Source: a virus. From it: a stretch of DNA of 64,000 nucleotides. Where the stretch lies: positions 62,001 through 126,000 of the IMG/VR virus record IMGVR_UViG_3300017917_002918; one strand, 5' to 3'. The notes beneath the pieces are model-generated. The model was not told where the DNA came from. It saw only the letters and a program-made list of their open reading frames with translations, and ran no database searches. How positions within the stretch are numbered: the first letter of the stretch is position 1; the number at the start of each line of letters is the position of its first letter. Position numbers and translations under genes: made by a program. Below are positions 22,966 through 56,493 of this stretch, one piece after another.

Positions 22966-23163
22966 TTAAATTTCAGCTTCATCGAATCCATTCTTAATTA
23001 CATTGTCACTAAAGCTAACGCCCTTTAAAAAATCTACAAATAAATCTACAACATCATGAATATCCTCATATTCATCAAATGTCTTTGATACAGTTACAAC
23101 TCTACCATCTGCCTCTACATATTGAAAGCTATAAGTTGTTCTATTGTTTTCCATCTCAATCAT
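22966..23163 (-). CDS. Acidic hypothetical protein, 65 aa
   Basis: A short strand-rich start (TTYSFQYVEADGRVVTVSKTFDEY) followed by an acidic helix (DIHDVVDLFVDFLKGVSF). GGATGGTG lies upstream. No family recognised. Confidence 0.55.
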   Translation of the reverse strand: MIEMENNRTTYSFQYVEADGRVVTVSKTFDEYEDIHDVVDLFVDFLKGVSFSDNVIKNGFDEAEI

Positions 23164-23184
23164 TTTTACACCATCCTTATATAA

Positions 23185-23361
23185 TTATTTATCACCTGTT
23201 TGCCATAACCACGCCAAACAATAACCCAAAAATCCAAACGCTCCGAACGAAAACACACCAGTGTTATAAGAAATTAACGCATCAAATATGTAAAACAAAA
23301 GCCATAATGTTAAACCTTTTGCTAGTGAGTATTTACGTAATTTATCCAATATGATTTTCAC
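23185..23361 (-). CDS. Two-pass membrane protein, about 58 aa
   Basis: GTG at 23,361 lies behind GAGGTGATTTTT. Residues 15-30 (GLTLWLLFYIFDALISY) and 35-52 (VFSFGAFGFLGYCLAWLW) are hydrophobic, so a two-helix inner membrane protein is likely. It forms a cluster of three membrane protein genes with the next two entries, all downstream of the structured leader at 23.8-24.1 kb. Confidence 0.6.
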   Translation of the reverse strand: MKIILDKLRKYSLAKGLTLWLLFYIFDALISYNTGVFSFGAFGFLGYCLAWLWQTGDK

Positions 23362-23382
23362 AAAAATCACCTCACTCTTTAC

Positions 23383-23622
23383 TCAGTCATATAAGTTAAT
23401 AACCCACCATAACAATACCAACATTGCCATTAGAAAATATACAATGATTAATACTAAATTTGCATATGCAATTATAATAAACGGGAACAGCATATAACTA
23501 TACTTTCTGAAGCTATTTAGATTGTTGGTAGGTGTGTGCAGAAAGTGAATTAAATTATGTATTACCAAGAATCCTACTGCACTTAGTAATATTCCTGCAA
23601 AATACAAATCGTAATACATCAT
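23383..23622 (-). CDS. Two- or three-pass membrane protein, 79 aa
   Basis: Hydrophobic segments occupy residues 5-25 (LYFAGILLSAVGFLVIHNL) and 45-76 (YMLFPFIIIAYANLVLIIVYFLMAMLVLLWW). It overlaps the upstream gene as TGATG, indicating coupled translation. Function unknown. Confidence 0.6.
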   Translation of the reverse strand: MMYYDLYFAGILLSAVGFLVIHNLIHFLHTPTNNLNSFRKYSYMLFPFIIIAYANLVLIIVYFLMAMLVLLWWVINLYD

Positions 23623-33319: not shown

Positions 33320-33431
33320 GAGAGTAGAAGGGATTCGAACCCTCACTATATGCACCTTACCCTACTAACCACCTGTGCATATCGCCCGTGCAGACCCACG
33401 CAACTGCTTTTACCATTTAGCAACTACTCTC
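33320..33431 (-). tRNA. tRNA-like RNA with long variable arm and non-standard anticodon arm
   Basis: On the minus strand GAGAGTAG (5') pairs perfectly with CTACTCTC (3'), an 8-bp acceptor-like stem. A D-like arm with TGGTA in its loop follows, and the T-arm is canonical (GAGGG TTCGAAT CCCTT). A variable-arm-like hairpin (ATATGCAC/GTGCATAT, 8 bp, 19-base loop) makes the whole 112 nt long. The 8+5 bp acceptor/T stack recalls tRNA-Sec. The anticodon arm is odd: CGTG/CACG with a 6-base loop GGTCTG, so no anticodon can be assigned. No CCA is encoded. It has its own promoter. Confidence 0.6.
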
Positions 33432-34353: not shown

Positions 34354-35277
34354 TTAATGTGCTAATTTATCGGCTTCATGTAAAATCATTAATTGATTAT
34401 AGAAATTTTGACCCATCAAATTAATAATTCTTTCTTTGCTCTTGTAAGAATCACAATTATACGGTCGCATATGCCATCTAATTAGTTGACAAATATATAA
34501 CAAGTCCTTTGTACTACAACGATTTTGCAAATAAAACAAAGCCATATAAGCAGATATTTGTTCGTGATTATAATAGTGAGCCATACTTGTTGTTTCACCT
34601 TTTTGATTCTTGAATTGCTTCACAAAAGCCTTTCCTGCATCATGTAGCAATCCTGCTATAGCTAAGTCACAATCATCTGTCATTAGTTGAACATGTCCTG
34701 AACATCGCAAGCAATGCTCACCAATGGTATATTGATGATTGATATTATCTTGATTGACACTGTTCAAGCCATTAACACCATTAAACAGCTCATGTAACGC
34801 ATTAATATTATATTGTTTCGTATTATTATAAATTATCTCTATTTCATCATAGCCCTCGAAGTAGGCAGGCACATCGAAGTTTAAATACATACGTTTAATA
34901 ACTTCTTCTGGTACAACTCGTTCTCTTTCCTTGTTTTGCTCCAAACATTGTTCATAGGGAGTTGCAAGTAAAAGGCAAATTTTATCACAAGGTACTTTCT
35001 TTAGCTCATACAACAATGCCATGCGTTTTTTATAGCTTACATTTGTTGCGTCCATGATTACGTTCTTTCCACTTATTAAATCGTTTTTGACTCTTTTATG
35101 TAACTCTGCAAATATATCTTTATTGGCTGATTGGTCATTTATATTATTTAATAATTCAACTCTTAAATCATCTGAGCTATGAATAGTTGCACTATAGTCA
35201 AGATCTAATTCTTTTGCCCATACTGACTTACCGCTTGCGGGCAGTCCTACTAGAAGGAAAAATTTATTATTCATCAT
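34354..35277 (-). CDS. Polynucleotide kinase-HD phosphatase fusion (RNA end-healing), 307 aa
   Basis: The start at 35,277 (MMNNKFFLLVGLPASGKSVW) overlaps the end of the RNA ligase gene. The N-terminal half is a Pnkp-like kinase: Walker A GLPASGKS, then HSSDDLRVE, IMDATNVSYKKR and a lid with NKERERVVPEEVI. The C-terminal half is an HD phosphohydrolase: HCLRCSGH, AGLLHDAGKAF, HYYNHEQIS and LIRWHM. HD-Pnk enzymes in other bacteria carry HD first; here the order is kinase then HD. Such enzymes phosphorylate 5'-OH and remove 2',3'-phosphates so that broken RNA can be ligated. Confidence 0.8.
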   Translation of the reverse strand: MMNNKFFLLVGLPASGKSVWAKELDLDYSATIHSSDDLRVELLNNINDQSANKDIFAELHKRVKNDLISGKNVIMDATNVSYKKRMALLYELKKVPCDKICLLLATPYEQCLEQNKERERVVPEEVIKRMYLNFDVPAYFEGYDEIEIIYNNTKQYNINALHELFNGVNGLNSVNQDNINHQYTIGEHCLRCSGHVQLMTDDCDLAIAGLLHDAGKAFVKQFKNQKGETTSMAHYYNHEQISAYMALFYLQNRCSTKDLLYICQLIRWHMRPYNCDSYKSKERIINLMGQNFYNQLMILHEADKLAH

Positions 35278-36595
35278 CTTCACCCACGCTCTCTGCTTCT
35301 TCCATATCAAGAACATCAGATGTTTTAATAATTCCTTCCAAAATTTTAAACGACACGTTTTTGTGTTTATATGCCTCAAATTTATTAGAATTTTCTTTAC
35401 GAATACAAACTCCCTCCCTAACGTGTACTTTTCCTATAGGATCTGGACCATCAGAAAACTTATCAACCCTCTCTTCTAAGTCTTCAATAGATGTAAAGAA
35501 AAACTTATCTAATACTGGTACGCATTTAACTGCCATTTGCTCACATCTTGCTTTAATTTGCTCTGTAGAGTACTCAAATACCACACCATCTTCATTTGTC
35601 ATCGTCATCCTATAAACATAAATATCATTTTGTCCTTGCTCACAACCATATGTAAATCTTGTAGTATTCCCGTATTGTTTTATAAATTCTTTATCCTTAG
35701 TTTTAGAGTTTTGACACTCTGGCATTATAAGTTGATTAACATTTACCCATGCAACTATCTCATAATAAATCGTCTCGCCTTTATGTAACTTACCAACGAA
35801 GTAATCGTGCCATTTCTTCCTGAATTCAGCACTACCATAGAACCCACCATCAAAGTTTTTCAATACTACTCTTCTTGATCCTGATACATACTTCCAAGTT
35901 TTTGTTGGCTTTGATTCAAGTTTTAAAAATTTCAATGTCCTATATAACCAATATGGTAATATACGCTTCTTTTCTTCAATCGAACGGGATGTGCGGGCAC
36001 TCGTGCCATGGCATTTGAGGGTTATGTATAATAAATCTCCTTGCTTAAATTGATGCTTATTATATGCAAATTGTTGAGTATCAACATGTTCTGCAAACAG
36101 TGGATAAGATGTAGGCTCTATACTTTTCGTTCTACCAGAATTACCACTATTATTTTCACCACTTCTATTTCTTCTTGGAATGTATTTTTCACAAATAACA
36201 ATTCCATTTAATACCGATATTGCATCCCCTTCTTTTAATTTACTTACATCTGTAAATGTTGATAAACTGTCAATTGACATAAACAAACCATCACTTATTT
36301 CCCCACGTAGTTTTAATGTTGATATATGACGTTTGTCTTCATCGAGATAGCCATACAAATGATTGCCATTTTCATCTTTAGTTCTGATTAACTTATTTTC
36401 TTTTGCAAACTCTAATCCAACTTTTGAATCCGTTGGAAAATAAATACCTAATTCACCTTCATAAACATCTAATCCAACAATAACTGAATTACTAAAGCAA
36501 CTACCAACCATTAATCTATCAGCGTTGATATGCCTTCTTAAATCTTTAATTCTTGTTACATATGCAACTACACTCACTTCAACCATACCTTTCAT
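35267..36595 (-). CDS. RNA ligase, DRB0094 (Rnl5-like) family, about 442 aa
   Basis: The ligase joins RNA 3'-OH and 5'-phosphate ends through an enzyme-adenylate. Residues 1-165 form the N-terminal OB-fold region of this family (VSVVAYVTRIKDLRRHINADRL, LRGEISDGLFM). The nucleotidyltransferase domain begins with the KxHG-type motif I KCHGTSAR (Lys194 as the AMP acceptor). Motif III-like YYEIVAWVN and motifs IV/V (REGVCIRKE, KFEAYKHKNVSFK) follow. The ATG at 36,595 lacks a good binding site; GTG at 36,577 behind AAAGG is an alternative. It overlaps the kinase-HD gene, so healing and sealing are coupled. Confidence 0.85.
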   Translation of the reverse strand: MKGMVEVSVVAYVTRIKDLRRHINADRLMVGSCFSNSVIVGLDVYEGELGIYFPTDSKVGLEFAKENKLIRTKDENGNHLYGYLDEDKRHISTLKLRGEISDGLFMSIDSLSTFTDVSKLKEGDAISVLNGIVICEKYIPRRNRSGENNSGNSGRTKSIEPTSYPLFAEHVDTQQFAYNKHQFKQGDLLYITLKCHGTSARTSRSIEEKKRILPYWLYRTLKFLKLESKPTKTWKYVSGSRRVVLKNFDGGFYGSAEFRKKWHDYFVGKLHKGETIYYEIVAWVNVNQLIMPECQNSKTKDKEFIKQYGNTTRFTYGCEQGQNDIYVYRMTMTNEDGVVFEYSTEQIKARCEQMAVKCVPVLDKFFFTSIEDLEERVDKFSDGPDPIGKVHVREGVCIRKENSNKFEAYKHKNVSFKILEGIIKTSDVLDMEEAESVGEDDE

Positions 36596-37564: not shown

Positions 37565-38908
37565 TTATATCACAGGTTTTAACTCATCTTCAGCAATTTT
37601 AATTAGCCTTTCCCTATCGTTTAATTCTGGTGACTCTATGACCATATCAACTAAAACATTTATTAATCTTCCTACAATTTTACCCTCCTTGAATCCCAAT
37701 TTAATCAAATCACTACCATTTATGGCTAAATCTTTTTTACTAAAACATTGATTGTCTGCTATTATTTCATTTAACAAAACTTCAATCTGCACCAAATTAT
37801 CCTTCTTTCTGTCATAGGCTAATTGACTCTGTGCTATCATATCAGCATATTTAAATTTCAGTAAGTCTCTAAAGTTTTCTTCACCAATTTTATTCAACCA
37901 CTTCTTAATACTTCTCTTATTAACTGAAATTTCAGCATCGTGATGAAGAACCAAGTTCCTAACTTTCATTATAATGTGATTGTCGTATCTTAATCTCCTT
38001 AATATTTCAACTGCCATATCAGAGCCAACAATAGGATGATTGTAAAAATGATCAATTCCGTATTCATCGGTAGTCTTGCACAGTGGTTTTGCTATATCAT
38101 GCAATAATGCTGTGAGTCTCAAATGTAACGTAGGCTCAATAGCAATTACAGATTTGATAATGTGATCAAATACATCGTGGTTGTGATATGGATTGTTTTG
38201 TTGAACATTGATAGTTGTATTTAATTCTGGGAGAATATACTTTAATATATTTGACATTTCCAAAAGTCCAAACCCATAGCTTACATTGTTACTTAATAAT
38301 ATTTGATTTAACTCACTCATGATACGTTCTTTAGAGACAACCATAATTTTATCTGCATTTTTATAAATAGCGTCCAACGTGTTTTCGTCAATTATAAACC
38401 CAAACCTCGAAGCAAATCTAACTGCTCGCATCATCCTCAATGCATCTTCGCTAAATCTTTCGTTTGCATTTCCAACACATCTAATCACGTTGTTAATTAA
38501 ATCCATACGACCACCAAATGGATCAAACAAGCCTTCTGTAAAGTTAAATGCCATAGCTCCAATTGTGAAATCCCTTCTGCTCAAATCCTCAACTAAATCA
38601 TCTGTAAAAGTGACTTCATCTGGATGCCTATTGTCGCTATATTTCCCTTCTTTCCTGAATGTTGTAATTTCATAGCCGATACCATCTGCCATTACTGTTA
38701 CAGTACCATGATCAATTCCTGTTGGAATAACATTATGATCTCTAAATACATTCATAACCTGTTCTGGTAACGCATTTGTAGTTATGTCCCAATCCTTTGG
38801 TGTTATGCCCAATATCATATCTCTTACACATCCACCGACTACAAAAGCTCTAAATCCTTTGTGTTGTAACGTATCTATTATATACTGTACTTGATTTGGC
38901 ATATACAT
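37565..38908 (-). CDS. cca: CCA tRNA nucleotidyltransferase with HD domain
   Basis: This class II enzyme adds or repairs the CCA end of tRNA. AFVVGGCVRDMILGITPKDWDITT holds the GGxxRD loop and the DxD metal site. RRDFTIGAMAFN and RRDF-type nucleotide-recognition elements follow, and LDPFGG-like FDPFGGRMDL lies beyond. A C-terminal HD domain (LTALLHDIAKPLC...HDAEIS) gives phosphohydrolase potential. Length (about 447 aa) matches bacterial Cca. The start is ATG 38,908 or GTG 38,914. It is 2-8 bases downstream of the nucleotidyltransferase gene. It could finish the element's CCA-less tRNA-like RNA or repair cleaved tRNAs. Confidence 0.92.
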   Translation of the reverse strand: MYMPNQVQYIIDTLQHKGFRAFVVGGCVRDMILGITPKDWDITTNALPEQVMNVFRDHNVIPTGIDHGTVTVMADGIGYEITTFRKEGKYSDNRHPDEVTFTDDLVEDLSRRDFTIGAMAFNFTEGLFDPFGGRMDLINNVIRCVGNANERFSEDALRMMRAVRFASRFGFIIDENTLDAIYKNADKIMVVSKERIMSELNQILLSNNVSYGFGLLEMSNILKYILPELNTTINVQQNNPYHNHDVFDHIIKSVIAIEPTLHLRLTALLHDIAKPLCKTTDEYGIDHFYNHPIVGSDMAVEILRRLRYDNHIIMKVRNLVLHHDAEISVNKRSIKKWLNKIGEENFRDLLKFKYADMIAQSQLAYDRKKDNLVQIEVLLNEIIADNQCFSKKDLAINGSDLIKLGFKEGKIVGRLINVLVDMVIESPELNDRERLIKIAEDELKPVI

Positions 38909-38915
38909 ACTCACT

Positions 38916-39683
38916 TCACCACCTCTCTGTTAATGCTCGTTTATTTAGATCTATCAACCATTCATTTATTTTATTATAGTCAGGATTTTTTGGAATTACA
39001 TTACTATTATCATATAGTTCATTTAATTCCTTGTCTAAATCGTCAATAATAACCAATATTTGCTCAAGTGTGTATTTACCATTTCTAATTGCTATTAATT
39101 CATCTCTATTAGGTCTAAATGTTGAAAACGTACCAGTTTTTAGTATTTCTATTGCAGAAGTTAACAATCTAACAGAATGTGCTCCAAATTTTACATCATA
39201 ACCATATGTTTCTACTAAGTCACACCTACCTGTTCCATTGCTACTTTTTGTTTTGAGTTTCTGTATTTGTGAATGAGCATAACCACCCATTTTGTGTTTT
39301 ATTACTTTAGATAAAAAATCTTGTCTGTGACTTATTAATTCCTTTCCAAATTGGTTGATTTCAATGATATGTTCCTCATTAACAAACAGTATCTCAATAT
39401 TATTAGGAACTCCTTGCATTGCATCATTTACAAATTTATTGATATGCATTATAGAAACGTCTACATCATCCTTGGTGTTTTTATAGTTCTTACCACCAGT
39501 GTTGTTATATTCATTAAATGTCTTTAATCCAAAGAAATACTCTTCAGGAGGAATACAAACGCCCTTATAATCTATATCGCTACCATCTATGTTTGTACCA
39601 TATGCATGTGAACCTGTGGTTGTAAGTAATATTAATCTATCACTTATCCAAGGCTGTGAATCTTTTGATATTTTAAAAGTCAT
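38916..39683 (-). CDS. Predicted nucleotidyltransferase (YbcL/COG3541-like), 255 aa
   Basis: TTTGSHAYGTNIDGSDIDYKGVCIP at residues 22-46 is the GS-x10-SDxD nucleotidyltransferase signature, with the two metal-binding aspartates in SDID. The rest matches the COG3541 layout (FLSKVIKHKMGGYAHSQIQKL; FGAHSVRLLTSAIEILKTG; LIAIRNGKY). These proteins are predicted to add nucleotides to RNA or protein, mostly without a tested activity. As first gene of the RNA-repair operon, right after its promoter, it probably modifies RNA ends. Confidence 0.8.
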   Translation of the reverse strand: MTFKISKDSQPWISDRLILLTTTGSHAYGTNIDGSDIDYKGVCIPPEEYFFGLKTFNEYNNTGGKNYKNTKDDVDVSIMHINKFVNDAMQGVPNNIEILFVNEEHIIEINQFGKELISHRQDFLSKVIKHKMGGYAHSQIQKLKTKSSNGTGRCDLVETYGYDVKFGAHSVRLLTSAIEILKTGTFSTFRPNRDELIAIRNGKYTLEQILVIIDDLDKELNELYDNSNVIPKNPDYNKINEWLIDLNKRALTERW

Positions 39684-39724: not shown

Positions 39725-39752
39725 ATTATAAACTATTTACATTAAAAGTCAA
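39725..39752 (-). promoter_or_regulatory. Promoter of the RNA-repair operon
   Basis: Minus strand TTGACT (39,747-39,752), 16 bases, TATAAT (39,725-39,730). It lies 35 bases past the rsr terminator, so the repair genes form a separate transcription unit from rsr. The recurrent AT motif precedes it. Confidence 0.8.
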
Positions 39753-39840: not shown

Positions 39841-41316
39841 TTATTTGAAATAGTAGCCTTCAATTTCTTGAATTAAACTATTTGAACCCTTTTCCACTAA
39901 ATCTATATATTCTAAAGTCTTTTCTGACCATCCAGAAATTATATTAACATTTTTACCCATGAATTGTTGTGTACCATAACCTTGTAAATCAATAGCATGA
40001 ACCCAAACGTCAGGATTTACTTCTTGCCTATACCGATCAACCAATGCTTGACATTGTACAGATCTACTATTACGCCAAAACGAATTTGTCTGAACCCAAC
40101 CACTATTGATTTCATTGTCTGAGAAAATAATAATTCTATCTACAAACATCTTGTTATCTAATGCCCATTTAATTGGTAGTGTTATGTCAGTTCCTCCACC
40201 GTTAACATTAATACTTTTGGCATTTGAAATTATACCGTTTGATGACGCTAGGTTGCATTGATAAAGCTTTGTGTCAAATGCAGTAGTGAACGTATCTTCA
40301 CATATATAATTTGCCATAGACATCATTAATGTTGCAATATCTGAACAAAGTACATCACTTTTTGCACTAATTCCACTATTCATTGAACCCGATACATCGG
40401 CACTCAACAATGTTTTGCCTTGAAGTTTATTTATATTTCTTGTGCTGATTTTAATTGCTTTTTCCAATGTATCGATTACTTTAGAACTTACCAACCCTTC
40501 ACTTGTCAATGCTTTATATGCTGAATAATATCTAAATGGCAACAACTTATTCTTTAACACCTTTTCTTCATCACCAAGAAACTCATATACCTTATCAATA
40601 TTACTTGCTCCTGATTTGATTATATTTCTTAAGTTCCTAATCATTGCCATATAACCGAGTTTATTATCGTTTATTAATTGTTCCCAAACTTCCTTAGTGT
40701 TGCCTTTTGCTGATAACTCTGTTTCCCAAGTCACAGGTGTTTTTAATCTATCTTCCAATAACCTTTTGAACATGTCACTTTGTTCATTTGTTTTAGGCTT
40801 CGGATGTACTAAACACAATATATCTCTAAGTTTAACCGCTTTATTCTTTCCATTATATTTTTGTAAACTATATTCATTAAACCTAAGAAATGAATCTGCC
40901 AACCCCTTTTTCATTGAGTTTGGAATAGGTTTGTTATACTTATTTATATAATATGATAGAATCTCGCTCATATCATCTACACGCTCAACCACTTTACCAA
41001 TAGTTTTTCTTGCAAATGGTTTACCTTGAATACTTTTAGCTAATTCAGCAGTAAGTACATGTGATATTGAACGTAAGTGAAACTCGTTTCTTGCGAATAA
41101 TGCTAAATTAGCAATAAACTTTGGATCATATTCGAGAATACTTTGAATCGTATTTATAATTTCATTATCATTATTGCCATAAAATTTGTTTTCACCAAAA
41201 AATGTAGTGAGAACCTGTGTAACTAACTTTTCCTTTTCATCCATCTTGAATGCTACAACACCAGATTTATTGACAGTTTTATTGACATTCTGTGTTGACG
41301 TATTAAATTTTGACAT
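39841..41316 (-). CDS. rsr: Ro60 orthologue Rsr: TROVE plus vWA domains, 491 aa
   Basis: Ro60 is a ring-shaped RNA-binding protein that holds Y RNAs and misfolded RNAs. Residues 10-290 match the TROVE HEAT-repeat ring (NEIINTIQSILEYDPKFIANLALFARNEFHLRSISHVLTAELA is characteristic). Residues 300-491 are a vWA domain with the MIDAS residues DVSGSMNS, GGGTDITLP and IIFSDNEI. The ATG at 41,316 behind AGAGGAATTAATT is correct; a longer frame up to 41,496 reads through the leader RNA and is not credible. The gene follows a tandem Y RNA array on the same strand and ends in its own terminator. In bacteria Rsr works with PNPase or RtcB-type repair systems. Confidence 0.93.
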   Translation of the reverse strand: MSKFNTSTQNVNKTVNKSGVVAFKMDEKEKLVTQVLTTFFGENKFYGNNDNEIINTIQSILEYDPKFIANLALFARNEFHLRSISHVLTAELAKSIQGKPFARKTIGKVVERVDDMSEILSYYINKYNKPIPNSMKKGLADSFLRFNEYSLQKYNGKNKAVKLRDILCLVHPKPKTNEQSDMFKRLLEDRLKTPVTWETELSAKGNTKEVWEQLINDNKLGYMAMIRNLRNIIKSGASNIDKVYEFLGDEEKVLKNKLLPFRYYSAYKALTSEGLVSSKVIDTLEKAIKISTRNINKLQGKTLLSADVSGSMNSGISAKSDVLCSDIATLMMSMANYICEDTFTTAFDTKLYQCNLASSNGIISNAKSINVNGGGTDITLPIKWALDNKMFVDRIIIFSDNEINSGWVQTNSFWRNSRSVQCQALVDRYRQEVNPDVWVHAIDLQGYGTQQFMGKNVNIISGWSEKTLEYIDLVEKGSNSLIQEIEGYYFK

Positions 41317-41346
41317 AATTAATTCCTCTTTTCTTATTAAATTTTT

Positions 41347-41413
41347 ATTCCAAAGGAAAGCCAAGTTGCTATTTTTTCGCCTATGAAGTAAGCAACTTGA
41401 GCACTGTTGGAAT
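41347..41413 (-). ncRNA. Minimal Y RNA-like hairpin in the rsr leader (RNA D)
   Basis: ATTCCAA/TTGGAAT (outer, 7 bp) and CAAGTTGCT/AGCAACTTG (inner, 9 bp) form a two-part stem with an internal loop, topped by the 20-base loop TACTTCATAGGCGAAAAAAT. The loop contains both motifs shared with RNAs A-C: (U)ACUUCA on the 5' side and CGAAAA on the 3' side. It lacks the tRNA-like insert. It lies 30 bases before the rsr start codon and could be a fourth Y RNA or a site where Rsr binds its own message. Confidence 0.6.
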
Positions 41414-41573
41414 TTAAAACAATATAATAATATGGGGAAATTCGAAGAAATTCTGTAGTGTGACTCATGGAGATCCACACAATAATACTTAGCCAATAGG
41501 TTAAAGTATCCACATAATAATCTTTTTATCTGAAGAAATTTTCTTCTTCACCACCATAGTATTAACAAAATTG

Positions 41574-41712
41574 TCAAGGGAAGAAAATCTGATTGAGATA
41601 TTATCGTGCGCTACCACTGCGCCACACACTGTATTAACATACAGCATGACAGGATTCGAACCTGTGACCCCGTCATCCAAATTGAAGTAGCCCAATCATC
41701 ACTTTCCCTTGA
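41574..41712 (-). ncRNA. Y RNA-like RNA C with permuted tRNA-like module
   Basis: The basal stem is TCAAGGGAA(A)G/CTTCCCTTGA (41,702-41,712 with 41,574-41,583) and the upper stem GATTGGG/CTCAATC. The 5' strand continues CTACTTCA...GATGACGGGGTC. The tRNA-like module is T-arm ACAGG TTCGAAT CCTGT (41,649-41,665), a 9-bp acceptor-like hairpin closed by a loop, then D-arm GCGC AGTGGTA GCGC (41,608-41,623). ACGATAATA and the GATTTTCTT element precede the 3' basal strand. The order is T before D, so this is not an ordinary tRNA. Confidence 0.8.
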
Positions 41713-41719
41713 TTATATA

Positions 41720-41867
41720 TAACAATTGTTAAAAGAAAATCACAAAGTCCATTTGTTCCGATTGCTCTCCCAACTGAGCTATATAGATTTAACTATAGAT
41801 GGACTCGAACCATCGACACATTGGTTTCTTGAAGGATTACTTTGCTGTACTGCTTAACAATTGTTAA
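41720..41867 (-). ncRNA. Y RNA-like RNA B with permuted tRNA-like module
   Basis: Basal stem strands TAACAATTGTTA at 41,854-41,867 and 41,720-41,732 are fully complementary, and the upper stem is CAAAGT/ACTTTG. The module has T-arm GATGG TTCGAGT CCATC (41,798-41,814), a CTATA/TATAG acceptor-like hairpin and D-arm GCTC AGTTGGGA GAGC (41,764-41,779). CCTTCA on the 5' side, TCGGAAC after the D-arm and GATTTTCTTT before the 3' strand match the other copies. Only 7 bases separate it from RNA C. Confidence 0.8.
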
Positions 41868-41877
41868 ATATCAATGT

Positions 41878-42028
41878 GTTAAATCAAGAAAAGAAAATCT
41901 AGCCAAGAGGTTTCGTACTCTGCCAATTGAGCTATATACCATATTAATATGATATAGTGGGACTTGAACCCACAACCCCGTCATTAAAAGTGAAGTATCT
42001 TGTCTATTGCACTGCAACTTGATTTAAC
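41878..42028 (-). ncRNA. Y RNA-like RNA A with permuted tRNA-like module
   Basis: Basal stem GTTAAATCAAG (42,018-42,028) pairs perfectly with CTTGATTTAAC (41,878-41,888), 11 bp; upper stem CAAGA/TCTTG. 5' side ATACTTCAC..., then T-arm GTGGG TTCAAGT CCCAC (41,957-41,973), an acceptor-like hairpin CTATAT...ATATAG, D-arm GCTC AATTGGCA GAGT (41,917-41,932), ACGAAACC and GATTTTCTTTT. An additional 6-bp helix GGGGTT/AACCTC takes the place of the anticodon stem. It is the first RNA after the promoter. Confidence 0.8.
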
Positions 42029-42053
42029 AAGGTTTAATCAACCTTATATATTT

Positions 42054-42082
42054 ATCATACCACACATTAAATCAAATGTCAA
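42054..42082 (-). promoter_or_regulatory. Promoter of the Y RNA array and rsr
   Basis: Minus strand TTGACA (42,077-42,082), exactly 17 bases, TATGAT (42,054-42,059). A small AAGGTT/AACCTT hairpin follows the expected start site, before RNA A. Confidence 0.85.
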
Positions 42083-54574: not shown

Positions 54575-54720
54575 AACATTATAACTTTAATGTTTCTTTC
54601 CTTGTTCATCATGTTCTTTTTCACATTATCGCTAATGCTACTAGAGTTTGTTTAACACTCCAAAGGCTTAATCTCCCCACTAACGTATGGGTACATTATA
54701 TTTACGCTATTTTATATTCA
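54569..54720 (-). ncRNA. Probable omega RNA (TnpB guide RNA) at the right end of the IS607 element
   Basis: In TnpB elements the guide RNA overlaps the 3' end of tnpB and runs to the right end. Here about 130 bases without any gene follow the tnpB stop and contain stem-forming GC patches (for example TACCCATACGTTAGTGGGGA near 54,670-54,690) before the terminal repeat. The guide would be the bases just outside the right end. Assigned by position and family, not by folding. Confidence 0.5.
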
Positions 54721-55874
54721 TTATAATCTCTTAAATTTAATGAAGCATTATGGTCTCTGTCATGAATTACTCCACAAGAAGGACATATCCATTCTCTATC
54801 ATTTAAATTTAATGCCTTATTTATATATCCACAATCATGACAAGTTTTAGAACTTGGATACCATCGACTCACAACTCTAACTTCAGTGTTATTCCATTTG
54901 CTCTTGTATTGCAATTGTAGTCTAAACTCATATAATGATTGTTGTTGTATTGCTTTTGATAAGTGCTTGTTCTTCATCATACCTTTGATATTCAAGTCTT
55001 CAATTACAATAAAGCTTGGTTTTCGCTTTATTATTTCAGAAGTTACTTGATGATTATAGTTATTCCTAGTTCCATTTAATTTATGTTGTACAGTTTTGAT
55101 TTTTTTTTCAAGTTTAATTATATTTTTAGTTTTTACAAACTTTACACCATCTTTGTTTTCTTCATATTTTCTTGACACTTGACGTTGTAATCTTTTCTTT
55201 TGTTTTTCAAGTTTTCTAATCTTATCAGATTTATTTATATTTTTATAAGTTATATTATCTGAGCATATAGCAAGATCTTTAATTCCAACATCAATACCAA
55301 TTCCATCATTTTGAGGTGTTTCAAGATTATCAGGGAATTCAACACCAACACTTATGAACCAATGTAAACCATCGTGAGATACTCTAGGATTTACATATTT
55401 AACATCTTTCCCGAAAGGAATTCTATTATGTTCAGCTAATCTTACCCAGTTTAATTTCTGCTTGTTTTTCTTGGAACTTTTAGCAAATCCTTCGAATTTA
55501 ACATGTGTAGCGTTAAACTGTATTTTTATATTGTCTTGATAAAATTTGGGTGGAGATTTCTTACGACTTTTAAATTTAGGGAATTTTGCTAATCCTTTAA
55601 AGAATTTTTGATATGCAATACAGGCATCTTTAATTGCTTGTTTTGATACATTATTAGAAGTATCGTTTAGCCACTTAAATTCTTCGATTTTCTTCAATTG
55701 TGTGAACTCTTTTCTTAAATCATTGTCACTTATAAATTTACCACCATTATCATAATTCTCTTTTTCTCTTGCCAGTGCCCAATTATAAGCGAATCTCTTG
55801 ACTCCTGCGTTTTGAAACATTAGTGTATTTTGCTTGTTATTAGGTACTAGCATTACTTTCATTCCCTTTATCAT
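54702..55874 (-). CDS. tnpB: TnpB RNA-guided nuclease of IS607 type, 390 aa
   Basis: TnpB is an RNA-guided DNA nuclease that favours element maintenance. It has a RuvC-like site: GIDVGIKDL (first Asp), FIVIEDLNIKG (Glu) and DHNASLNL (last Asp). A four-Cys zinc ribbon (CHDCGY...CPSCG) lies between the second and third. The start at 55,874 (MIKGMKVMLVPNNKQNT) lies behind AAGGAG and overlaps the tnpA end by 35 bases. The N-terminal helical RNA-binding region (FAYNWALAREKENYDNGGKF) is complete, so the protein is full length and probably active. Confidence 0.9.
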   Translation of the reverse strand: MIKGMKVMLVPNNKQNTLMFQNAGVKRFAYNWALAREKENYDNGGKFISDNDLRKEFTQLKKIEEFKWLNDTSNNVSKQAIKDACIAYQKFFKGLAKFPKFKSRKKSPPKFYQDNIKIQFNATHVKFEGFAKSSKKNKQKLNWVRLAEHNRIPFGKDVKYVNPRVSHDGLHWFISVGVEFPDNLETPQNDGIGIDVGIKDLAICSDNITYKNINKSDKIRKLEKQKKRLQRQVSRKYEENKDGVKFVKTKNIIKLEKKIKTVQHKLNGTRNNYNHQVTSEIIKRKPSFIVIEDLNIKGMMKNKHLSKAIQQQSLYEFRLQLQYKSKWNNTEVRVVSRWYPSSKTCHDCGYINKALNLNDREWICPSCGVIHDRDHNASLNLRDYNEYKIA

Positions 55875-56493
55875 CGTTTTCATCTCCTTCCTCAATTAAT
55901 ACATCAATCATTTTTCTAGCCTTATTGGCTCTTTTACCCTGCAATCTACAACTAAATACTGTAACTATTTGAATTAAATCTTCTACCAATTCCTGTTGTT
56001 CTGTTTTTTCCGTACTATCTAATATTTCAATTTCACAACCATTTAAATTCGCTATATATTCTACTAATTCGAAACCAAATCTCAAAAGTCTATCTTTATA
56101 GAGAATTACTATTTTATCTATCTCTTTGTTATTTATTTTTTTTAGCAAATCTCTAAGTCCCCTTTTTTTATAATTAATACCACTTCCAATATCAGTTATG
56201 ATATCATAAGGTTTGTTAAGAGAGTCTAGATATCTTGTCATGTTTTCAACTTGTCTAGCTAAGTCGTCTTTTTGCTTGTTTGAAGACACTCTACAATAAC
56301 CAATTATTACTTTGGGTTTTGTTGTGTCATCGCTAATATTTAAAACTTCTTTTAATTGTTCATGTGAATAATACCTATATCCACCTGCTCCAGTGTGATT
56401 GGGTTTTAATTTTCCCGAAGAATCCCAATTTCTCAATGTTTGTGGTGTTCTTCCTATAAGTTTGGAAAATTCATGTATGCTATAATACTTCAT
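55840..56493 (-). CDS. tnpA: IS607 TnpA serine recombinase (transposase), 217 aa
   Basis: The start at 56,493 (MKYYSIHEFSKLIGRTPQTLRNWDSSGKL) follows GAGGTGATAATT. An N-terminal MerR-like helix-turn-helix (residues 1-45) is followed by a small serine recombinase domain with the nucleophile in GYCRVSSNKQKDDLARQ and the arginine region YKDRLLRFGFELVEY. This HTH-first arrangement defines IS607 TnpA. It is intact. Confidence 0.9.
   Translation of the reverse strand: MKYYSIHEFSKLIGRTPQTLRNWDSSGKLKPNHTGAGGYRYYSHEQLKEVLNISDDTTKPKVIIGYCRVSSNKQKDDLARQVENMTRYLDSLNKPYDIITDIGSGINYKKRGLRDLLKKINNKEIDKIVILYKDRLLRFGFELVEYIANLNGCEIEILDSTEKTEQQELVEDLIQIVTVFSCRLQGKRANKARKMIDVLIEEGDENDDKGNESNAST

What the first reader, a model, noticed from the sequence alone, without database searches (positions are those of the whole stretch)
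39841..42082. Mobile-element Ro60 (rsr) with a tandem array of three Y RNA-like RNAs under one promoter
An rsr gene encoding a full TROVE/vWA Ro60 protein is preceded on the same strand by three RNAs (A, B, C) packed 7-10 bases apart behind one strong promoter. Each has a basal stem, an upper stem, a (U)ACUUCA-like 5' motif, an NCGRNAN-like 3' motif and a tRNA-like module. Y RNAs beside Ro60 are known in many bacteria and phages. A three-copy polycistronic array with such different basal stems is, to my knowledge, unusual. The differing stems suggest copies that hold the ring in the same way but carry different tRNA-like modules.
Basis: partly seen in the sequence, partly recalled or inferred. 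Interest (0 to 1): 0.92.

Follow-up and report, generated by a model that had tools for sequence, protein, structure and literature searches.

The report
Five-unit phage Ro60 Y RNA array
A phage of Clostridia-like bacteria carries a gene for the ring protein Ro60 behind a run of five small RNAs that share one ring-holding stem; three of them carry a tRNA whose sequence order has been rotated. Such runs proved common in related bacteria and phages, but the rotated tRNAs, some with an anticodon arm, are not described in any paper I could read.

Summary
Upstream of rsr (39841-41316, minus strand; TROVE + vWA) there are five Y RNA units, not three, behind one sigma-70 promoter. A, B and C carry tRNA-like modules, D carries two hairpins, and E is minimal and sits in the rsr leader. 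A covariance model built only from units on bacterial contigs of other species hits the window only at A, C, B (82, 81, 67 bits) and D (27 bits). The 'tRNA-like module' is a circularly permuted tRNA: inserts joined head-to-tail are called tRNA by ARAGORN in 69 of 100 units, against 1 of 100 linear and 0 of 300 shuffled. Many, window A and C included, keep an anticodon-type stem with a 7-nt loop, absent from the YrlA description I could read. Multi-unit arrays are ordinary here: 20 of 75 related rsr loci have at least three units, and one phage has more than ten. So 'three copies is unusual' is wrong. Rfam's YrlA model misses this branch at its cut-off. A few phage units carry ordinary, unpermuted tRNAs. 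Downstream lies an RNA-repair cluster. Most likely function: Ro60 adapters that mimic tRNA. New variant of a known kind; binding and expression untested.

The parts
42054..42082 (-). sigma-70-type promoter TTGACA-17-TATGAT (extended TG) driving the array
   Evidence: 11 of 12 matches; consensus match only
41877..42029 (-). Y RNA unit A: basal stem 12 bp, upper stem, UACUUCA, permuted tRNA with anticodon-type loop CUUUUAA, T arm 41957-41973, acceptor hairpin, D arm
   Evidence: R1 82.4 bits
41718..41868 (-). Y RNA unit B: palindromic basal strands, UCCUUCA, permuted tRNA without clear anticodon stem
   Evidence: R1 66.6 bits
41574..41712 (-). Y RNA unit C: UACUUCA, permuted tRNA with anticodon-type stem-loop UCA-AUUUGGA-UGA
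   Evidence: R1 81.3 bits
41425..41564 (-). Y RNA unit D: same core (UUCUUCA, GAAUUUCC), insert of two hairpins, not tRNA-like
   Evidence: R1 26.9 bits, E 5e-5
41347..41413 (-). Y RNA unit E: minimal core with 14-nt insert, ends 30 nt before the rsr start codon
   Evidence: descriptor score 37.5; not found by R1
39841..41316 (-). rsr, Ro60 protein (TROVE + vWA with DxSxS), 491 aa
39787..39821 (-). intrinsic terminator after rsr
38916..39683 (-). RlaP, RNA-repair nucleotidyltransferase
   Evidence: PF10127, 67.5 bits; own promoter-like site 39752-39725
37565..38914 (-). CCA-adding enzyme / tRNA nucleotidyltransferase with HD domain
35267..36595 (-). RNA ligase with OB domain (phrog_968)
   Evidence: 216 bits; Pfam RNA_ligase below cut-off
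34354..35379 (-). P-loop polynucleotide-kinase-like + HD domain protein

Best explanation
The five RNAs are Y RNAs of the phage's Ro60 (Rsr), made as one transcript with rsr. SHOWN by sequence: each unit has the same Ro60-type core (basal stem, GUGNN, upper stem, UNCUUC, and in most units GAUUUUCU), which covaries in relatives, and a different insert on top; in A, B and C the insert is a circularly permuted tRNA. INFERRED: the core sits on the Rsr ring, and the insert is presented outward as a tRNA mimic that recruits tRNA-binding proteins (PNPase in the known RYPER particle, or tRNA-repair and tRNA-modification enzymes). The array would thus give one ring several adapters: tRNA-type (A-C), other (D) and bare gate (E). 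In this phage the likely use is handling of damaged tRNA during infection, because an RNA-repair cluster lies immediately downstream.
For: Core motif GTTACTTC upstream of 65 of 75 related rsr genes, 1 on the reverse strand. Descriptor: 139 units against 4 on the reverse strand and 5.3 in shuffles. Covariation: 95% paired against 37-51% in slid controls, 23 of 37 pairs changed on both sides. R1 hits only the array in the window. Permuted tRNA: 69 of 100 doubled inserts against 1 linear and 0 shuffled. RlaP, CCA enzyme, ligase and kinase genes downstream, with RlaP, ligase and kinase in the same order in phage L005. Rsr-Y RNA-PNPase tethering is known in Deinococcus (PMC7790460, PMC8394870).
Against: No expression or binding data for this phage. 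Most rumen-phage records with the same Rsr and Y array show no RlaP, CCA enzyme or ligase relative (several are fragments), so repair genes are not obligate partners. Units without tRNA modules need another role. Partner identity is not testable here.
Confidence: 0.6

Rival explanations
1. Decoys: the tRNA mimics, some with anticodon-type stem-loops (window A: CUUUUAA, the tRNA-Lys(UUU) loop), occupy host tRNA-attacking defence enzymes such as anticodon nucleases, while the ring keeps the decoys stable.
For: 7-nt loop on a 3-bp stem in 26 of 80 units against 0-8 at other loop lengths, CUUUUAA commonest; the innermost stem pair covaries; loop position kept between three phages. Hughes et al. 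suggested YrlA may act as a competitive inhibitor of an anticodon nuclease (PMC7790460).
Against: The same forms occur in chromosomal Clostridia loci, not only phages; many units have no anticodon stem; Salmonella YrlA was not cut by the nuclease (PMC7790460).
Confidence: 0.17
2. The tRNA modules are mainly for stability or folding; Y RNAs act as gates over the Rsr cavity and module identity hardly matters, so modules drift and are replaced from nearby tRNA genes.
For: Great diversity of inserts (none, hairpins, T arm only, permuted, linear tRNA); arrays lie in or near tRNA clusters; minimal units such as E are common.
Against: T-arm and acceptor pairing are kept with compensatory changes and the D arm is nearly invariant, which implies selection on the tRNA shape.
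Confidence: 0.13
3. The last unit (E) is a leader element through which Rsr controls its own translation.
For: The last unit ends 17-42 nt before the start codon in 24 of 60 loci, 30 nt in the window.
Against: Short gaps are also expected from compact operons; E covers neither the ribosome-binding site nor the start codon.
Confidence: 0.08

Closest known systems
YrlA RNAs (Rfam RF02553; Salmonella YrlA, PDB 6CU1)
   Same: Basal Ro60 stem, T arm - acceptor hairpin - D arm order, gene beside rsr
   Different: Sub-gathering Rfam scores (27-37 against 69 bits); different core motifs; many units keep an anticodon-type stem-loop, whereas YrlA is described with D, T and acceptor arms only (PMC8394870); array of five
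rsr-yrlBA-rtcBA operon of Salmonella
   Same: Rsr and more than one Y RNA together with RNA-repair genes
   Different: Repair genes here are RlaP, CCA enzyme, ATP-grasp RNA ligase and kinase-HD; no RtcB, RtcA or RtcR was seen among the neighbouring genes examined
Phage TROVE/Ro60 genes (jumbo phages, mycobacteriophages, crAss001, csAssE-Sib, Listeria CKA15/P100)
   Same: Phage Ro60; several have Y-like RNAs next to it
   Different: Of the named phages examined, csAssE-Sib and crAss001 gave arrays of this core type; no array is described in the papers read, although PMC12282133 proposes that abundant Listeria phage transcripts may be Y RNAs

Membership tests
Ro60/Rsr | TROVE domain plus Ro60 vWA domain, full-length ORF | tested here: met
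   PF05731 115.7 bits (cut-off 23), PF25045 56.4 bits (cut-off 27.7)
Ro60/Rsr | Metal-site motif DxSxS in the vWA domain | tested here: met
   D307, S309, S311 invariant in four aligned Rsr proteins
Ro60/Rsr | Binds Y RNA on the ring | not testable with these tools
   needs binding assay
YrlA (RF02553) | Score at or above Rfam gathering cut-off | tested here: not met
   37.4, 35.6 and 27 bits against 69; also no RF02553 hit at cut-off in 14 related loci
Bacterial Y RNA, broad sense | Conserved Ro60-binding-type stem next to rsr | tested here: met
Bacterial Y RNA, broad sense | At least one RNA with tRNA-like T, acceptor and D arms | tested here: met
   units A, B, C
Bacterial Y RNA, broad sense | Expressed and bound by Rsr; tRNA-type base modifications | not testable with these tools
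   needs RNA-seq, pull-down, mass spectrometry
RNA-repair cluster (RlaP/RNA ligase/kinase) | RlaP plus RNA ligase plus end-healing kinase in one neighbourhood | tested here: met
   RlaP, CCA enzyme, phrog_968 ligase and PNK-like + HD within about 5.5 kb; enzyme activities not tested

The most novel reading that the evidence does not exclude
In this branch the Ro60 stem is a general display platform onto which whole tRNAs have been grafted in several topologies (permuted with an anticodon arm, linear tRNA inside the Y RNA, or the core replacing the anticodon loop of an ordinary tRNA), and phages keep arrays of them as tRNA baits or decoys that work with their RNA-repair enzymes.
Probability: 0.25. 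Interest if true: 0.82.

Novelty: new variant of a known kind. Interest (0 to 1): 0.52.

Why it matters
It shows a large branch of Y RNA arrays that the current Rfam model does not see. It gives a simple sequence test that the tRNA mimic of a Y RNA is a rotated tRNA. It finds forms with anticodon arms and forms with ordinary tRNAs inside, so some annotated phage tRNAs (csAssE-Sib tRNA-Tyr and tRNA-Lys) appear to be parts of Y RNAs. That makes the open question of what the tRNA mimic is for directly testable, by comparing modules on one ring.

Tried and rejected
Three-copy array as an unusual feature: rejected. The NCGRNAN-like 3' motif: not the conserved one. Cross-unit tRNA hit 41790-41941: the D arm of A joined to the T arm of B, with an imperfect acceptor; taken as chance. 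TTACTTC alone in the window is at chance level, so the motif means something only inside the structure. The tRNA-like gene at 33320-33430 as a Y RNA: no Ro core seen in its insert. Inverted-order core scan: mostly pairs strands of neighbouring units; only L007 kept, fold z -0.13, supported by Infernal. MFE folds of single units often miss the T/D arms (unit B) or are no better than shuffles (csAssE-Sib unit), so the structure rests on covariation. Rfam below cut-off gave chance hits (Plastid-ycf2, snR57). Key Y RNA papers (PMC4201824, PMC10870794, PMC6047535) are not held, so novelty against them is unchecked.

Full report
WHAT THE WINDOW IS. The window is positions 62001-126000 of a 167,401-bp IMG/VR virus record. 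It encodes phage-type proteins: helicase, ParB-like protein, integrase, NAD-dependent DNA ligase. Its Rsr is closest to Rsr of phages (62-66% identity: L005, L008) and of Clostridia such as Acetivibrio (63-65%), so the host is probably a clostridium-like bacterium (inference).

THE OBSERVATION. rsr lies at 39841-41316 (-) with TROVE and Ro60 vWA domains. Upstream on the same strand, Rfam YrlA hits A, B and C below its cut-off. By eye, and then by a descriptor (basal stem - GUGNN - upper stem - UNCUUC - insert - upper stem' - U-rich internal strand - basal stem'), there are five units: A 41877-42029, B 41718-41868, C 41574-41712, D 41425-41564, E 41347-41413. 300 dinucleotide shuffles of the same 1,400 nt gave a mean of 0.087 and never more than one. 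The descriptor was shaped while reading this array, so the independent tests are the next two.

INDEPENDENT TESTS. (1) In 75 loci (the window plus 74 related rsr loci), k-mer counting without any structure shows GTTACTTC upstream in 65 loci against 1 on the reverse strand. The descriptor finds 139 units against 4 on the reverse strand and 5.3 in shuffles. (2) An alignment of 21 units from bacterial contigs, none from the window or from the viral collection, has 37 pairs, 95% standard, 23 changed on both sides; the slid controls fall to 37-51%. Model R1 from that alignment, run on the whole window at E up to 10, returns four hits only: A 82.4, C 81.3, B 66.6 and D 26.9 bits (E 5e-5). E is not found by R1 and rests on the descriptor (score 37.5) and on the recurrence of the same minimal type in relatives.

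THE MODULE IS A ROTATED tRNA. The order in A, B and C is (anticodon part) - variable loop - T arm - acceptor hairpin - D arm. If an insert is a circularly permuted tRNA, writing it twice in a row restores the normal order. Of 100 inserts of 55-140 nt, ARAGORN called 69 as tRNA when doubled, 1 when single, and none of 300 shuffled ones; A, B and C were all called. End trims of 0-13 nt were tried alike for doubled real and doubled shuffled inserts; the single inserts were tried untrimmed, and with the same trims for a smaller set, where only the linear-tRNA units were called. The junction falls in the D/anticodon region in nearly all. In 26 of 80 units with a T arm, the bases right after the core motif form a 3-bp stem with a 7-nt loop, against 0-8 for other loop lengths; the commonest loop is CUUUUAA, and most end in UAA. 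The inner pair of this stem covaries (UA 6, CG 5, AU 2, GC 2). Window A (UCA-CUUUUAA-UGA) and C (UCA-AUUUGGA-UGA) have it one base earlier; B does not. Unit A has likely orthologues in L008 and L005, the latter with loop AUGUUAA. A review describes the YrlA domain as D, T and acceptor arms only (PMC8394870). I could not read the primary papers, so whether they note anticodon arms or the permutation is unknown to me.

OTHER TOPOLOGIES, IN PHAGES. An ordinary tRNA with encoded CCA sits inside a Y core in L012 (883-955, Infernal 60.4 bits). In phage csAssE-Sib the annotated tRNA-Tyr and tRNA-Lys lie inside two Y units next to a permuted one. In L008 one unit runs acceptor hairpin - D - anticodon - T (z -3.3). 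In L007 an ordinary tRNA body (47.8 bits with a long insert) seems to carry an inverted-order core in place of the anticodon loop; this one is tentative. Since tandem tRNA genes read across their border give the same T - acceptor - acceptor - D order, and R1 partly matches such borders, I infer that the modules were cut out of tandem tRNA genes at different points.

HOW UNUSUAL. 20 of 75 loci have three or more units by the descriptor, which undercounts. Phage L008 has more than ten, L014 about seven, and Bacteroidetes loci have up to five, up- and downstream of rsr. The array as such is therefore ordinary in this branch. At its cut-off Rfam reports no YrlA in 14 such loci.

NEIGHBOURHOOD. The promoter TTGACA-17-TATGAT at 42082-42054 and a terminator after rsr (39821-39787) bracket the array and rsr; no terminator lies between the units. 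Downstream come RlaP, CCA-adding enzyme, HNH, RNA ligase and a kinase-HD protein, with their own promoter-like site at 39752. L005 keeps rsr - RlaP - ligase - kinase, and L008 has RlaP next to the CCA enzyme about 10 kb from rsr. Most rumen-phage records lack these genes, though several are fragments. Association of phage TROVE proteins with RNA repair is already proposed (PMC7824862).

MECHANISM. Shown: a common core, different tops, tRNA shape under selection; co-transcription likely from the layout. Inferred: binding to Rsr, outward display, recruitment of tRNA-handling proteins, use against tRNA damage. Decoy, gate and leader-control readings remain open and are given as rivals. The last unit ends 17-42 nt before the rsr start in 24 of 60 loci, which makes leader control worth testing.

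VERDICT. A real, well-supported Y RNA array; two units more than reported; not unusual as an array; a new variant in its rotated tRNAs with anticodon arms, seen across the branch.

Noticed in passing
33320-33430 (-): tRNA-like gene (RF00005, 40.4 bits) with perfect acceptor stem, D and T arms but about 48 nt in place of the anticodon arm, behind a strong promoter-like TTGACA-16-TATAAT; not called by ARAGORN; purpose unknown.
   Followed up: partly
54598-54666 (-), next to ORF 54702-55895 (-): RAGATH-18 RNA (58.5 bits) directly 3' of a transposase gene (phrog_506); may be the guide-RNA end of a TnpB-type element (inference).
   Followed up: no
L112 3639-3771 and 3784-3915 (phage csAssE-Sib, OR575929.1): Annotated tRNA-Tyr and tRNA-Lys lie inside Y RNA units upstream of its Ro60 gene, so these tRNA annotations may be parts of Y RNAs.
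   Followed up: yes
L012 848-1000: A complete linear tRNA with encoded CCA sits inside a Y RNA core; it might be excised as a working tRNA.
   Followed up: partly
L007 3756-3901: tRNA (47.8 bits) whose anticodon region seems to hold an inverted-order Ro core: a non-permuted counterpart of YrlA.
   Followed up: partly
L113 5513-6233 (crAss001, MH675552.1): Three Y-like units by the descriptor in the gap downstream of the TROVE gene of the cultured crAss001 phage.
   Followed up: partly
L117 about 23091-23600 (-), Listeria phage P100: Three short repeated hairpin units with ACAGCAAnTACTA-like and AAAACG-like motifs directly upstream of gp165, assumed here to be its Rsr; may match the abundant transcripts reported for the related phage CKA15 (PMC12282133).
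   Followed up: no
L008 (182,060-bp record) 181720-182060 and 1-1895: Y array of more than ten units continues over the record end, which suggests a circular map; tRNA genes lie among the units.
   Followed up: partly
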